Shown here: in pieces, positions 11,655 to 20,985 of the stretch | How the letters are laid out: each line of letters opens with the position of its first letter | Position numbering within the stretch: the first letter of the stretch is position 1 | NCBI GenBank assembly: GCA_001917995.1 | Contig: MNFB01000058.1 | Location: 1-33,510, forward strand | From: Thaumarchaeota archaeon 13_1_40CM_4_38_7 | GTDB lineage: Archaea; Thermoproteota; Nitrososphaeria; Nitrososphaerales; Nitrosopumilaceae | Direction: 5' to 3' | Length of the DNA stretch: 33,510 nucleotides | Notes under the pieces: generated by a model | The model's database searches: none | The model's input: the letters and a program-made list of their open reading frames with translations, nothing else | Told to the model about the DNA's origin: nothing | Translations under genes and position numbers: made by a program

Positions 11655-13409
11655 CTAAAAAAGATCTTGCACTAATGTTTGAATACTGTCTATTTCGTCT
11701 TCCTCATGTTTTATCTTCTTCTCAATAACGCGGATCATGGAATCTTGCCATACATGATGTGAGAAAAAGTTGTGGTATGTATTTGCTGCTAACATTTCAT
11801 CATCTACCACCGTATCTTCTAGAAATTTTGTCACAACTGTATCGGTAAGTTTCAGAATTCTTTGATTTAATTTAATACTCTTGAATATTGGTTCTAATTT
11901 TGAGATATCCTCCTTGAAATCGTCGTGTGTAAGTAAAATCTTTTCATGAAGGATCTTGAAATAAACAGCAACAAAGAATAGAGTAGCATATCTCTTAGTC
12001 TTATGACCTCCTTTCTTACCATAGTTCAATACTATCTTGGCATATTCTTTCACAAGATATGGATATAGAAGAAGCCTGTAATCATCTTTCAATTTCTCAT
12101 TGAATACTTCATCATACTTACTTCCCCTTGGTAGAAACTGAGCTGGTGAACTATATGCTTCTGTAGGCCGTTGCTCTATTCCAGCAACAAATGCTTGAAT
12201 TGCGTCTTTTGCTACTATTGCTTTTTTGTGATTATCTGGCAAGTACCTGTTGTATAGCTGTTCACCTACAAACTCGCTTTGTTGGGATTTTGTTTTACTA
12301 TCAAATGAGCCTCCTTGAATCTCATAAAAATAATGAAGATTTTCCATCTGAGATTTGATAGATTTATGAAAATCCATTAAAGACACCAGATCTTTTCCTC
12401 TTACCGCATTCTGTGAATTTCTGTACTTTGTAATGTTATTTTGGTCAAGCTCATCTGCAGCCTTGATGATTGTTACCGTTATGCTTCCATCCAGATTATG
12501 TGTACGTTTAGCGTGATCCAGTACTGAGTTTGACGTCTGTGCACCATTGACTATCTGAGGCGAATATAGCATTATGGAGCTATCCTCTAATTCCTCAAAA
12601 TCACTTACTACAATCGTTATTCCGTTATTGTAATAGAAAAACTTGTGTGGTAATTCTTGCAAAGTTTCTCGTAGTCCCTTGTTTACCGTTGTCTTGAATT
12701 GCATCCACTGTCTAATGTTGGATTCAAAAACATAATCCCTATTCTTGGTGACAAAATTCGTAAGTTCTCTCAGCTTTAGAATCCCAAGTAATGTGTTTTG
12801 ATACCTAAGTTTACATTCTAATCTAATTGATGCCTTTTTACCAGCAGCTGGTTTCTTTATTCTATCCCAGAGTTTTTGTATGATTACATCTATATCATAT
12901 ACTTCAATAGAGTCATAATCGTCATTTTCTACTTTTTGGTCGGTAACATACACACATTCAATTTTAAGATTTTTTTCCAAAATTTGAGTAACTAAATAAG
13001 CAAGTTCTGGACGCATTTTTGAAATATCTTTACTTGGAAGTCTCTTGACATCTTCTTTGAACTTTGTTATAGCTTCGATAGAATGGGAGCTCCCATACTT
13101 GGATTGAAAAAGATAGATTTTACCCTCCGAAAAGTCTACTGGTAGATAAGCATCGATTCCTAGATCATTCGGTCCATCAATTATTGCATCAGTTGCGTCA
13201 TCTTCTGTTGCCTCAAACACTCGCGTCAATACCCATTGCAAAAAATTATGTCCTTTCTCAATTTCATTCTGAGCACTTTCTACATATTCTCTAATGCTGA
13301 CTCTGATATTTTCGGCGAATCCTTCTAGGGGCTGACCATTAGAATTCTGTTGAAAAAAAGGTCTAGCGCCTGGTATATACTCTAATAATCCATTGCTTCT
13401 TTCTGCCAA
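11655..13409 (-). CDS. AIPR-family (abortive infection phage resistance) protein
   Basis: A 584-aa protein. The N-terminal third looks like a PD-(D/E)XK nuclease fold: Asp86 in LGIDAYLP followed by Gln102-x-Lys104 in YLFQSKYG, the D-(E/Q)xK variant. The middle carries the AIPR signature, FFYYNNGITIVVSDF at 257-271 and IVNGAQTSNS at 286-295, then ITKYRNSQNAVRGKDL. Relatives are found in phage-defence loci and some restriction systems; the mechanism of stand-alone members is not well established. The TTG at 13409 is the only usable start near the N-terminus. It sits between a candidate RNA and the 3' end of tRNA-Cys, with no methyltransferase, helicase or integrase nearby, so it would act alone. 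Confidence 0.85.
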   Translation of the reverse strand: MAERSNGLLEYIPGARPFFQQNSNGQPLEGFAENIRVSIREYVESAQNEIEKGHNFLQWVLTRVFEATEDDATDAIIDGPNDLGIDAYLPVDFSEGKIYLFQSKYGSSHSIEAITKFKEDVKRLPSKDISKMRPELAYLVTQILEKNLKIECVYVTDQKVENDDYDSIEVYDIDVIIQKLWDRIKKPAAGKKASIRLECKLRYQNTLLGILKLRELTNFVTKNRDYVFESNIRQWMQFKTTVNKGLRETLQELPHKFFYYNNGITIVVSDFEELEDSSIMLYSPQIVNGAQTSNSVLDHAKRTHNLDGSITVTIIKAADELDQNNITKYRNSQNAVRGKDLVSLMDFHKSIKSQMENLHYFYEIQGGSFDSKTKSQQSEFVGEQLYNRYLPDNHKKAIVAKDAIQAFVAGIEQRPTEAYSSPAQFLPRGSKYDEVFNEKLKDDYRLLLYPYLVKEYAKIVLNYGKKGGHKTKRYATLFFVAVYFKILHEKILLTHDDFKEDISKLEPIFKSIKLNQRILKLTDTVVTKFLEDTVVDDEMLAANTYHNFFSHHVWQDSMIRVIEKKIKHEEDEIDSIQTLVQDLF

Positions 13410-14686: not shown

Positions 14687-14944
14687 GTGAATAGAATCAG
14701 ACGAATTTCCACAGAACTATTAGCTGCTCATCGGAAGGAATTTGGTACTGATTTTCATGACAACAAAAAGATATTAAATGAAGTAGCAATAATTAGATCT
14801 AAGGGGCTCAAAAACGAAATAGCAGGTTACATAACTTCGTATCTGCGAAGAGAACTAGAAGAACAAAAAGAAAAAGAATCAGAAGCTGCAACACAAACCA
14901 AACCTATCAACGAAACTGAAATGGAAGAGCAAATACTAAACTAA
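14687..14944 (+). CDS. rps17e: Ribosomal protein eS17
   Basis: An 85-aa small-subunit protein present in archaea and eukaryotes. The core MNRIRRISTELLAAHRKEFG, DFHDNKKILNEVAIIRSKGLKNEIAGYITSYL-like pattern (in parts, residues 22-55) matches eS17, followed by a Glu/Gln-rich C-terminal tail typical of mesophilic archaea. The start is GTG at 14687; TATA box GTATAAAAAA at about 14657-14666 is about 26 nt upstream, so initiation is leaderless. The next gene starts 57 nt on with its own TATA box. Confidence 0.93.
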   Translation: MNRIRRISTELLAAHRKEFGTDFHDNKKILNEVAIIRSKGLKNEIAGYITSYLRRELEEQKEKESEAATQTKPINETEMEEQILN

Positions 14945-15000: not shown

Positions 15001-15777
15001 ATGATAACAATCAAATTTCTTGGAGGAGCAAAAAAATCATTTTCACGTGACAGTCTGACCATTGAAAGCGATCCCATGTCGGTGTCCGACCTTCTTAACT
15101 ATCTTCAGAAAATCCTTCCTAGGAATCCTACTTTTGACATGAAAAATATTCTTGTTGCGGTAAATGGAGTAGATTCTTCTGCATTACAAGGCCAGAACAC
15201 AAATCTTAAGGACGGAGATATAATAACCATAATTCCACTAGTACATGGAGGCGGATTGAATAGAAAACGGTATGTCATTGTTAACACAAACGTGGAACTA
15301 ATAAAATTGAAAAAAACTGAGGACGATCCAGTCACATTTCTTGAAGTTTTACGTGGTAAATATCCAAACTTAGTAATACAAGGCATTCAATCTAATTACA
15401 TCCTTGATCTCAAACATGTGAAAAAGGTTCTTACTTTATCGCTTGCAGCCGAAAAAGCCGGAGAATTACTGTCTAATAAAATGGAGACTGATATTATAAT
15501 GAGATTTGCATGTACAAGACAGATAAGTGATGCTATTACTAAAGTAGGTTTACAAAAAGGCATAGATTACGTACTAGTAATAGTTGGAAAAAGATCCTCA
15601 ATAGATAAGTTATTCAGAGAAATCAAGCACATGCTGATAATTCACTGGACTTTTGCGAATAATGCTAAGTTTATCCAACAGGAATTTTCAATAACTAGAA
15701 AAGAGCTTGATTCTATCATATCTACAACTCCTCTTGAGGATGTCTTGGCTGAAAGGTCAGCAGTTTTATTCCGTTAA
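15001..15777 (+). CDS. Fusion of a MoaD/ThiS-like beta-grasp domain with the KEOPS subunit Cgi121
   Basis: Residues 1-85 form a ubiquitin-like beta-grasp domain of MoaD/ThiS/SAMP type: MITIKFLGGAKKSF at the start, VAVNGVDSSALQG in the middle, LKDGDIITIIPLVHGGG at 70-85. Residues 90-258 match Cgi121, the KEOPS component that binds tRNA and activates Bud32, including IQGIQSNYILDLKHVKKVL and FACTRQISDAITKVGLQKG. The Gly-Gly-Gly at 83-85 sits just where free sulfur carriers end. The ATG at 15001 is chosen because the TATA box (CATATAAAAC, 14973-14982) lies about 25 nt upstream; a TTG at 14989 would add four residues. TsaC and a THUMP protein are convergent neighbours. The fusion and its boundaries are visible; cleavage at the glycines is speculation. 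Confidence 0.8.
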   Translation: MITIKFLGGAKKSFSRDSLTIESDPMSVSDLLNYLQKILPRNPTFDMKNILVAVNGVDSSALQGQNTNLKDGDIITIIPLVHGGGLNRKRYVIVNTNVELIKLKKTEDDPVTFLEVLRGKYPNLVIQGIQSNYILDLKHVKKVLTLSLAAEKAGELLSNKMETDIIMRFACTRQISDAITKVGLQKGIDYVLVIVGKRSSIDKLFREIKHMLIIHWTFANNAKFIQQEFSITRKELDSIISTTPLEDVLAERSAVLFR

Positions 15778-16287
15778 ATCGCGTTTCATTTTTAATGTAC
15801 TTACTATGTCATTTTCTTTGAGCACAGATGTGCCAGTAGTTCCACCAAGAATCTCTACAATTACATTCCAATCGAATTTTTCTAGTGATACCTTATTTTG
15901 AATATTTTTTGCAATAGAATCTATTACTTCCTTAGATGACAAGTCTGAACCTCTCTTTTCAATGGTTATTCTGTAGGTGTCATTGGGGTTCATTATATTG
16001 ATATGATTTTGTACAGAACTTGCTATACTCTCAATAGTTGTTTTAGTAGTCTCTTGAATTGGTATGAACCGACGACAAAATCTAATACACCACGGTTCAT
16101 CAAGAATTTTCTTTTTAATTTCATTTACAACAGCAAGCGGATCAAGTATAGTAGTTATGGTAATAATTCCTGAAAAAGAAGAAATCTCTATCATGGGTGA
16201 AATGTCTCCTAAATTGTAGAGGATTTTTAAGATCTCATTGGAAGCTTCCTCTTCAAGATGACGATTACATGTAACGATTAGATTCAC
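15766..16287 (-). CDS. THUMP-domain RNA-binding protein (Tan1-like)
   Basis: A 173-aa protein with a THUMP-type pattern: an N-terminal ferredoxin-like part (MNLIVTCNRHLEEEASNEIL), ISSFSGIITITTILDP, then CIRFCRRFIPIQ and a final VSLEKFDWNVIVEILGGTTGTSVL strand pair (shown in parts, residues 128-157). Tan1-like THUMP proteins bind tRNA and in eukaryotes are needed for acetylcytidine formation in tRNA-Ser and tRNA-Leu. It overlaps the upstream tsaC by 4 nt (ATGA at 16284-16287), so the two are translationally coupled, and overlaps the Cgi121 fusion by 12 nt. A catalytic domain is absent. Which modification it serves is not shown. Confidence 0.8.
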   Translation of the reverse strand: MNLIVTCNRHLEEEASNEILKILYNLGDISPMIEISSFSGIITITTILDPLAVVNEIKKKILDEPWCIRFCRRFIPIQETTKTTIESIASSVQNHINIMNPNDTYRITIEKRGSDLSSKEVIDSIAKNIQNKVSLEKFDWNVIVEILGGTTGTSVLKENDIVSTLKMKRDLTE

Positions 16288-16883
16288 AATATGCTCATTA
16301 ACTCCTTCTCTTTTACTTTGCCCTCTCGTATTATCTCTAATTTGTTATCAATAACTTCTACAATGGTAGATTCTGCAGAATCAGAAATCTTTCCACCATC
16401 CAGGAGAACATCGTAGCCAGAAATTTTGCTGGGTATTTCACTTGAATCTTTGAAGGGCGGAAGACCTGAAAGATTTGCACTAGTTCCAACGAGTAGCTTG
16501 CATTCCTTAAGAAGTGACAATAAACAGGAGTGATTGGGAACCCGTACCGCAATTTTGCCTTTTAGATTTAATGAATTTGCAATTTCTCTTTTCTTTACCT
16601 TTAGAATCAATGTCACTGCTCCCGGCCAGAATTTGTTTGCTATTTTTTCTGACAATTCATCAAAAAAGGCGATCTTTTCGATCTCTTCTTTAGAATAACC
16701 AAGAACTGGAAGTAGTTTTGTTTTCTCTCTCCCTTTTATCTTGTATATTGTTTTGACTGCCTCATGATTATATGGATCGCATCCTATGCCGTACACAGTA
16801 TCAGTAGGTAGTACAACTACGCCGCCTTTCTTTATTGCCTCTAAAGCCACTTTGATTCCTTCTTCATTACACTGTACGTTCAC
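16284..16883 (-). CDS. tsaC: L-threonylcarbamoyladenylate synthase (TsaC/YrdC family)
   Basis: This 199-aa enzyme makes threonylcarbamoyl-AMP from threonine, bicarbonate and ATP, the first step in t6A synthesis at tRNA position 37. The YrdC signature is clear: GGVVVLPTDTVYGIGCDPYN at residues 20-39, KIKGREKTKLLPVL, the FWPGAVTLIL motif near residue 87, VRVPNHS and VGTSANLSGLPP. It lacks the extra Sua5 C-terminal domain, so it is the short TsaC form. It is coupled to the THUMP gene and lies beside Cgi121, which acts in the second step of the same pathway. The ATG at 16883 is a clean start. Confidence 0.95.
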   Translation of the reverse strand: MNVQCNEEGIKVALEAIKKGGVVVLPTDTVYGIGCDPYNHEAVKTIYKIKGREKTKLLPVLGYSKEEIEKIAFFDELSEKIANKFWPGAVTLILKVKKREIANSLNLKGKIAVRVPNHSCLLSLLKECKLLVGTSANLSGLPPFKDSSEIPSKISGYDVLLDGGKISDSAESTIVEVIDNKLEIIREGKVKEKELMSIL

Positions 16884-20285: not shown

Positions 20286-20328
20286 TAAACGACTACTTTT
20301 AATGTGGATGATCTTGGAAGAAATCTAT

Positions 20329-20985
20329 ATGGCAAAGTTTCCATATTACATTGAAGTCTATGATCTGATAGAATTTTCAAGGCTTGTTTGTGCTTTAGAA
20401 CGAATTCCGCGTACCTCTTTCTCATTTGACTTTGATAAAAGAAACGTCATTTCTGTGCAAATGGATGTACTCAAAGAACGACCAGTTAACTATTATGTTC
20501 AAACTGATAAAACTGGACATTATCTCTCATACGAACTTAAGGCAGGCAAAGAGAACTGTGACATTGTAAATACAATAACAAATCCTACCTACCTTTACTC
20601 CCCAATTGTCAGGGTAAAATCGTTACCAAACACACTAAAACCAGAAACCAACATGGACAAGGATGTAATGTATGAATCCCTTGAACTCGAGGATATTACC
20701 AGTTTGATAAAACTAAGCTATGGATTTGAAGAATCTCCATTTCCCTTATTCACTTTCCCGGATGGAACAAGATGGTTTGTAGGATTGTTTATGAATTTTA
20801 ACGAGTCTGACGAGTTCTCCTACTTTTGTCATGTTAGACTTGACTATGAACCTACAAAACCATTCCTAAAGTATTCCAGCAAGGACGGAACTGAACCGAC
20901 TTTTGTAAATTCCCTAAGCGATCATGGTTACTCATACCTTAAGGTAATAAAGCTAAAAGATAAACATCCTCTAGTCAAACTATGA
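20329..20985 (+). CDS. Hypothetical protein (218 aa) upstream of pyrF
   Basis: I recognise no family. The sequence is soluble and mixed alpha/beta, rich in Tyr, Phe, Pro and charged residues (KFPYYIEVYDLIEFSRLV at the start; DGTRWFVGLFMNFNESDEF in the middle). The ATG at 20329 is preferred; an in-frame ATG at 20302 overlaps the TATA-like CTTTTAATG and would put the promoter inside the gene. The stop overlaps the pyrF ATG by 4 nt (20982-20985), so the two are translationally coupled and may act in the same process. There is no evidence beyond that. Confidence 0.7.
   Translation: MAKFPYYIEVYDLIEFSRLVCALERIPRTSFSFDFDKRNVISVQMDVLKERPVNYYVQTDKTGHYLSYELKAGKENCDIVNTITNPTYLYSPIVRVKSLPNTLKPETNMDKDVMYESLELEDITSLIKLSYGFEESPFPLFTFPDGTRWFVGLFMNFNESDEFSYFCHVRLDYEPTKPFLKYSSKDGTEPTFVNSLSDHGYSYLKVIKLKDKHPLVKL

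What the first reader, a model, noticed from the sequence alone, without database searches (positions are those of the whole stretch)
15001..15777. Ubiquitin-like (MoaD/ThiS) domain fused to KEOPS subunit Cgi121 through a Gly-Gly-Gly junction
The first 85 residues are a beta-grasp sulfur-carrier-like domain ending VHGGG, directly followed by a Cgi121 domain. Free carriers of this family end in Gly-Gly, and ubiquitin in eukaryotes is made as fusions cut after Gly-Gly. The arrangement could be a precursor cut by a JAMM-type protease to release a carrier and Cgi121 in equal amounts, or a permanent bridge joining KEOPS (t6A) to sulfur-transfer tRNA modification. TsaC, the first t6A enzyme, and a THUMP tRNA-binding protein lie directly beside it. 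I do not know this fusion as a described system.
Basis: partly seen in the sequence, partly recalled or inferred. Interest (0 to 1): 0.8.

Follow-up and report, generated by a model that had tools for sequence, protein, structure and literature searches.

The report
Ubiquitin-like carrier fused to Cgi121
In ammonia-oxidising archaea one gene encodes both a ubiquitin-like sulfur carrier and a tRNA-modification subunit (Cgi121), joined at the exact two glycines where the carrier would have to be cut free; the fusion was reported in 2010, but the sequence evidence here that it must be cut to yield any free carrier is new and easy to test.

Summary
Window 15001-15777 (+) encodes 258 aa: a ThiS/Urm1 beta-grasp domain (1-84) joined to Cgi121 (88-258). 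The window is a Nitrosotalea-like Nitrosopumilaceae genome. The architecture is not new: Makarova & Koonin (2010) reported it for all thaumarchaea then available.

New here is evidence on how it works. Fused ORFs occur across the family. In 118 distinct fusions His82-Gly83-Gly84 never changes, despite 13, 55 and 42 silent codon changes, whereas residues 85-90 changed 17-48 times. AlphaFold finds 82-85 the only disordered stretch. In other families of the class the two genes are separate neighbours; the carrier ends ...HGG-stop in 24 genomes, or after a 1-9 residue tail. Fusion arose at least twice, or was repeatedly undone. In 24 near-complete Nitrosopumilaceae genomes the only ThiS-family domains are this one and another fused to E1; none stands alone. 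E1, a TtuA/Ncs6 thiolase and catalytic JAMM proteases are present in nearly complete genomes of the genus.

Best reading: a precursor cut after Gly84, probably by a JAMM protease as for MoaX and SAMP1-MoaE, releasing carrier and Cgi121. Cleavage itself is inferred.

The parts
15001..15777 (+). Ubl-Cgi121 fusion gene (258 aa plus stop)
   Evidence: fused across the family
15001..15252 (+). ThiS/Urm1-type beta-grasp ubiquitin-like carrier domain, residues 1-84, ending His82-Gly83-Gly84
   Evidence: Pfam ThiS 4.3e-11; Foldseek Urm1/SAMP1/MoaD
15244..15252 (+). HGG motif; proposed cut after Gly84 (between bases 15252 and 15253)
   Evidence: 0 amino-acid changes in 118 distinct fusions against 13/55/42 codon changes; pLDDT < 50 at 82-85 only
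15262..15774 (+). Cgi121 (KEOPS subunit) domain, residues 88-258
   Evidence: NCBIfam Cgi121 2.6e-31; Foldseek to solved Cgi121 structures; profile match to MJ0187 and PF0523
14687..14944 (+). ribosomal protein S17e, conserved upstream neighbour, same strand
   Evidence: Pfam 8.3e-17; adjacent in 71 of 74 loci
15766..16287 (-). THUMP-domain protein, convergent neighbour
   Evidence: Pfam THUMP 2.6e-5; adjacent in 72 of 72 loci
16284..16883 (-). TsaC/Sua5, threonylcarbamoyl-AMP synthase (first t6A enzyme)
   Evidence: Pfam 1.3e-52, TIGR00057 5.2e-50; nearby in 64 of 72 loci

Best explanation
The gene encodes a precursor. Residues 1-84 are a ubiquitin-like sulfur carrier and 85-258 are the KEOPS subunit Cgi121. 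A protease, most likely one of the genome's JAMM/MPN+ metalloproteases, cuts after Gly84. The freed ...HGG carboxylate can then be adenylated by the Ubl-E1 protein and loaded with sulfur, serving TtuA/Ncs6-type tRNA thiolation (and possibly protein conjugation). The other half joins KEOPS as Cgi121 and binds the tRNA CCA end. Shown: the fusion, its spread, selection up to Gly84 and not beyond, split relatives ending at the same residue, absence of any detected stand-alone ThiS-family gene, presence of E1, JAMM and TtuA/Ncs6 genes. Inferred: that cleavage occurs, that JAMM does it, and what the carrier serves.
For: (1) HGG in 131 of 131 fused ORFs examined (115 distinct), and in 71 of 71 retrieved through another motif. 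(2) 118 distinct fusions: H82, G83, G84 have 0 amino-acid changes but 13, 55, 42 silent codon changes; residues 85-90 have 32, 40, 32, 17, 48, 43 amino-acid changes, median over the protein 22. (3) Residues 82-85 are the only segment with pLDDT < 50, so the glycines are not held by packing. (4) In other families the genes are separate neighbours and the carrier ends HGG-stop in 24 genomes, or carries a short tail after GG: A, S, CL, CI, MVGV, SPKPA, GKNKRKL, CLRYDGEVE; tails also need trimming before E1 can act. (5) At least two separate fusions (or repeated fissions), in Nitrosopumilaceae and in a Nitrososphaeraceae genus, each keeping HGG. (6) 24 family genomes in one contig, 96-99% complete: exactly two ThiS domains over cut-off, both fused (Ubl-Cgi121 and Ubl-E1); Ubl-E1 also keeps GG at its junction in every one read. 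(7) JAMM with HSHP...S..D, E1, TtuA/Ncs6. (8) Precedents: HvJAMM1 cuts SAMP1-MoaE after Gly-Gly in an archaeon and deleting GG stops it (PMC4443979); MoaX must be cut at Gly82|Ser83 (PMC4326299); DRJAMM cuts MoaD-MoaE (PMC8832034).
Against: No direct evidence of cleavage. No JAMM gene was seen near the fusion in the conserved neighbourhood, and JAMM substrates here are unknown. One distant lineage (G050, L040) has a fusion in which HGG became HCS and no other ThiS domain was found (82% complete genome), so there the domain persists without a carrier end. Some other glycines (8, 64, 183) are also invariant. TtuA/Ncs6 was not found in the window's own 80%-complete genome.
Confidence: 0.68

Rival explanations
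1. Permanent fusion: the beta-grasp domain is a built-in docking or regulatory part of KEOPS, never released; Gly-Gly is a flexible hinge.
For: Fusion is stable across a whole family. G050 keeps a fusion without GG. pTM 0.65 suggests two domains on a hinge. Carrier and Cgi121 genes are neighbours even when split, hinting that the two proteins work together.
Against: A hinge does not need a strictly invariant His-Gly-Gly with a free-for-all at the next residue. The same three residues are the carrier's end in split relatives. It would leave near-complete genomes with E1 and TtuA/Ncs6 but no usable ThiS-family carrier.
Confidence: 0.17
2. Regulated switch: the uncut fusion is an active or inactive form of KEOPS and JAMM cutting controls t6A synthesis, as HvJAMM1 activates SAMP1-MoaE.
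For: SAMP1-MoaE is inactive until cut (PMC4443979). Cgi121 is needed to recruit tRNA by its CCA end (PMC7718258).
Against: No evidence that the N-terminal domain blocks Cgi121; gain and loss of fusion within one Nitrososphaeraceae genus suggests the joined state matters little.
Confidence: 0.1
3. Historical accident: a stop codon was lost between two neighbouring genes and the carrier domain is now a decaying leftover.
For: Split relatives with the same gene order are common.
Against: Strong purifying selection on the carrier domain, including its end residues, over a deep tree.
Confidence: 0.02

Closest known systems
Thaumarchaeal Ubl-Cgi121 fusion of Makarova & Koonin 2010 (PMC2948915)
   Same: Same fusion, same clade, same S17 neighbour; that paper suggested SAMPylation control of KEOPS or joint action in RNA/protein turnover.
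   Different: The passages read there do not discuss cleavage at the glycines, the split relatives, the short tails, or the lack of any free carrier gene.
MoaX / MoaD-MoaE fusions and engineered SAMP1-MoaE, cut by JAMM (or, for MoaX, unidentified) proteases
   Same: N-terminal beta-grasp carrier joined at Gly-Gly to a partner enzyme subunit; next residue often Ser or Ala here, Ser in MoaX; JAMM protease in the genome.
   Different: Partner is a KEOPS tRNA-modification subunit, not MoaE; MoaE was not found in the genus; cleavage not shown.
Thaumarchaeal Ubl-E1 fusion (also noted in PMC2948915)
   Same: Second carrier in the same genomes, again joined at a conserved Gly-Gly, with separate-gene relatives ending GG-stop.
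   Different: Partner is the E1 enzyme itself; last residues AGG (SGG in one) rather than HGG.
Eukaryotic ubiquitin precursors (ubiquitin-ribosomal protein fusions) and SUMO precursors
   Same: Carrier made with extra C-terminal sequence that must be cut after Gly-Gly.
   Different: Different carrier family, partner and proteases; comparison from general knowledge.

Membership tests
ThiS/MoaD/Urm1 beta-grasp carriers | beta-grasp fold and family profile match | tested here: met
   Pfam ThiS 4.3e-11, 43.6 bits over its 22.5-bit cut-off; Foldseek Urm1, SAMP1, MoaD
ThiS/MoaD/Urm1 beta-grasp carriers | C-terminal Gly-Gly that is free and can be activated by E1 | tested here: inconclusive
   Gly-Gly invariant but followed by Cgi121; needs cutting, which was not observed
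Cgi121 (KEOPS) | family profile and fold | tested here: met
   NCBIfam Cgi121 2.6e-31; KEOPS Cgi121 structures; aligned with PF0523 and MJ Cgi121
Cgi121 (KEOPS) | binds Bud32 and the tRNA CCA end | not testable with these tools
   needs purified proteins; the QI..AI..G core is conserved
Thaumarchaeal Ubl-Cgi121 fusion (Makarova & Koonin 2010) | Ubl N-terminal to Cgi121, downstream of S17, in thaumarchaea | tested here: met
JAMM-processed carrier fusions (MoaX, SAMP1-MoaE type) | Gly-Gly at the junction, conserved | tested here: met
JAMM-processed carrier fusions (MoaX, SAMP1-MoaE type) | catalytic JAMM protease encoded in the genome | tested here: met
   2 or more Prok-JAB matches per genome in 12 of 12 genus members; HSHP...S..D motif in those read
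JAMM-processed carrier fusions (MoaX, SAMP1-MoaE type) | cleavage after the second glycine | not testable with these tools
   needs protein experiments or mass-spectrometry data

The most novel reading that the evidence does not exclude
A whole family of abundant archaea makes all its ThiS-type ubiquitin-like carriers only as the front part of larger proteins (Ubl-Cgi121 and Ubl-E1), so a JAMM protease is obligatory for sulfur-carrier supply, and the supply is tied one-to-one to a KEOPS subunit and to the activating enzyme.
Probability: 0.5. Interest if true: 0.65.

Novelty: new member of a known kind. Interest (0 to 1): 0.5.

Why it matters
If cut as proposed, ammonia-oxidising archaea would resemble eukaryotes in making their ubiquitin-like proteins as precursors, and two tRNA modifications (t6A and 2-thiouridine) would draw on one gene product. 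It turns a 2010 comparative-genomics remark into a sharp, cheap test: find the free ...VHGG end.

Tried and rejected
Triple glycine as the conserved junction: rejected, residue 85 is S, A, R, G, N, K, T, L or E. A carrier serving molybdopterin synthase: unlikely, MoaE not found in 12 of 12 genus members. Supply of free carrier from another gene: not found at E <= 1 with the ThiS profile in near-complete family genomes; a few sub-threshold hits in G006, G035, G113, G194 were not followed up. Internal translation start: could give free Cgi121 but not a free carrier. First genome-contig scan with the single protein found nothing; the alignment scan worked but one of its two patterns contains HGG, so conservation was checked separately on loci matching the other pattern and on whole-genome searches. 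Literature searches found no functional study. One tree run failed on a thread setting and was repeated.

Full report
What is there. The ORF at 15001-15777 (+) encodes 258 residues. Residues 6-84 match Pfam ThiS (4.3e-11) and Urm1 (1.2e-6); residues 129-199 match CGI-121 (1.5e-6), and NCBIfam calls the protein Cgi121 at 2.6e-31. AlphaFold2 with 49 homologues gives mean pLDDT 88.6 and pTM 0.65: a beta-grasp domain, then Cgi121 starting with a strand at 88-93. The only segment under 50 is 82-85, the His-Gly-Gly-Gly itself. Foldseek returns KEOPS Cgi121 structures first (about 1e-7) and then Urm1, SAMP1 and MoaD (6e-5 to 1e-3).

Where it is. Relatives at 57-61% identity are named Candidatus Nitrosotalea, and the wider set Nitrosopumilus, Nitrosarchaeum, Nitrosotenuis and Nitrosopelagicus. 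In the window's family 177 of 185 genomes match, mostly as one uninterrupted frame. The order histone(-), TatD(+), S17e(+), fusion(+), THUMP(-), TsaC(-), PurA(+) is conserved in most named loci.

It was already described. [quoted passage not shown] They also mention a Ubl-E1 fusion. I found no functional study.

Selection stops exactly at Gly84. Among 131 fused ORFs examined beyond the first genus set, all have HGG (115 distinct), as do 71 of 71 that were found through a different motif. On a tree of 118 distinct fusions, His82, Gly83 and Gly84 show 0 amino-acid changes with 13, 55 and 42 codon changes; residues 85 to 90 show 32, 40, 32, 17, 48 and 43 amino-acid changes. Other invariant glycines exist (8, 64, 183), but these lie in the folded domains, whereas 83-84 lie in the predicted disordered junction. 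Residue 85 is mainly Ser or Ala.

The likely ancestral state is two genes. In other families of the class, carrier and Cgi121 are separate neighbours. The carrier ends HGG-stop in 24 genomes read; others carry a short tail after GG: A (G205), S (G057), CL (G037), CI (G276), MVGV (G038), SPKPA (G294), CLRYDGEVE (G053), GKNKRKL (G021). G205 and G021 lie inside the fused family and look like secondary splits or assembly errors. A genus in f8 (g51) has both fused (five genomes) and split members. In the tree, Nitrosopumilaceae fusions form one clade (support 99) and the f8 fusions sit among split relatives, so fusion arose at least twice or was repeatedly undone. Easy swapping of tail, fusion and stop is what one expects if a protease trims at GG; that step is inference.

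No free carrier. In the 24 family genomes that are one contig and 96-99% complete, the ThiS profile finds exactly two domains over cut-off, in the Ubl-Cgi121 frame and in a Ubl-E1 frame of about 440-500 aa (longer in GC-rich G063); nothing clearly stand-alone appears at E <= 1, the remaining weak sub-threshold hits lying in longer frames that I did not examine. The fused f8 genomes G297, G298 and G306 show the same. All Ubl-E1 junctions read also keep GG; in G049 and G039 that carrier too is a separate gene ending GG. The genus has E1, two or more Prok-JAB matches per genome with the catalytic HSHP...S..D pattern where read, one resembling the haloarchaeal desampylase below its cut-off, and TtuA/Ncs6 in 11 of 12 members, the exception being the incomplete G000. 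MoaE was not found in any of the 12. Hence, unless a carrier of another family substitutes, a free ThiS-type carrier can come only from cutting.

Precedent. HvJAMM1 cuts an engineered SAMP1-MoaE fusion in Haloferax exactly after the terminal glycine, needs GG in the cell, and the uncut form is inactive (PMC4443979). MoaX of Mycobacterium must be cut at Gly82|Ser83 (PMC4326299). DRJAMM cuts MoaD-MoaE (PMC8832034).

Against. No protein evidence exists here. G050 has a fusion with HCS in place of HGG and no other ThiS domain detected, so in that small, 82%-complete genome the domain persists without a carrier end. The ThiS search could miss a very divergent carrier.

Verdict. The architecture is known; the precursor reading is well supported by sequence but unproved. 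Interest is moderate: a clear prediction about an abundant group of archaea, with a simple test.

Noticed in passing
L143:1429-2748 and homologues: A second fusion, Ubl-E1, is the only other ThiS-domain protein in these genomes; it keeps AGG before the E1 domain, and relatives encode the two parts separately. A threonine synthase gene lies directly upstream in the loci read.
   Followed up: partly
L037:976-1833: In G046 the Cgi121-linked carrier is fused instead to a phosphoribosyltransferase at HGG|T, with Cgi121 as the next gene: a third partner joined at the same glycines.
   Followed up: partly
L040 (G050): Separate, distant Ubl-Cgi121 fusion in which HGG has become HCS; the only ThiS domain detected in that genome.
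   Followed up: partly
L252 (G219): Another apparently fused frame outside the order (HGG followed by AGVHVRAYLVE), possibly a further independent fusion.
   Followed up: no
window 11655-13409 (-): AIPR-family protein (Pfam 4.3e-54; PADLOC AbiU 6.1e-43), a likely phage-defence gene between the CxxCxxCC protein and the histone.
   Followed up: no
window 15766-16287 (-): THUMP-only protein always convergent with the fusion; it recalls the Tan1/THUMPD1 tRNA-acetylation adaptor (from memory, not tested).
   Followed up: no
window 20302-20985 (+): 227-aa ORF between PurA and an OMP decarboxylase-like gene with no Pfam match at 0.001.
   Followed up: no
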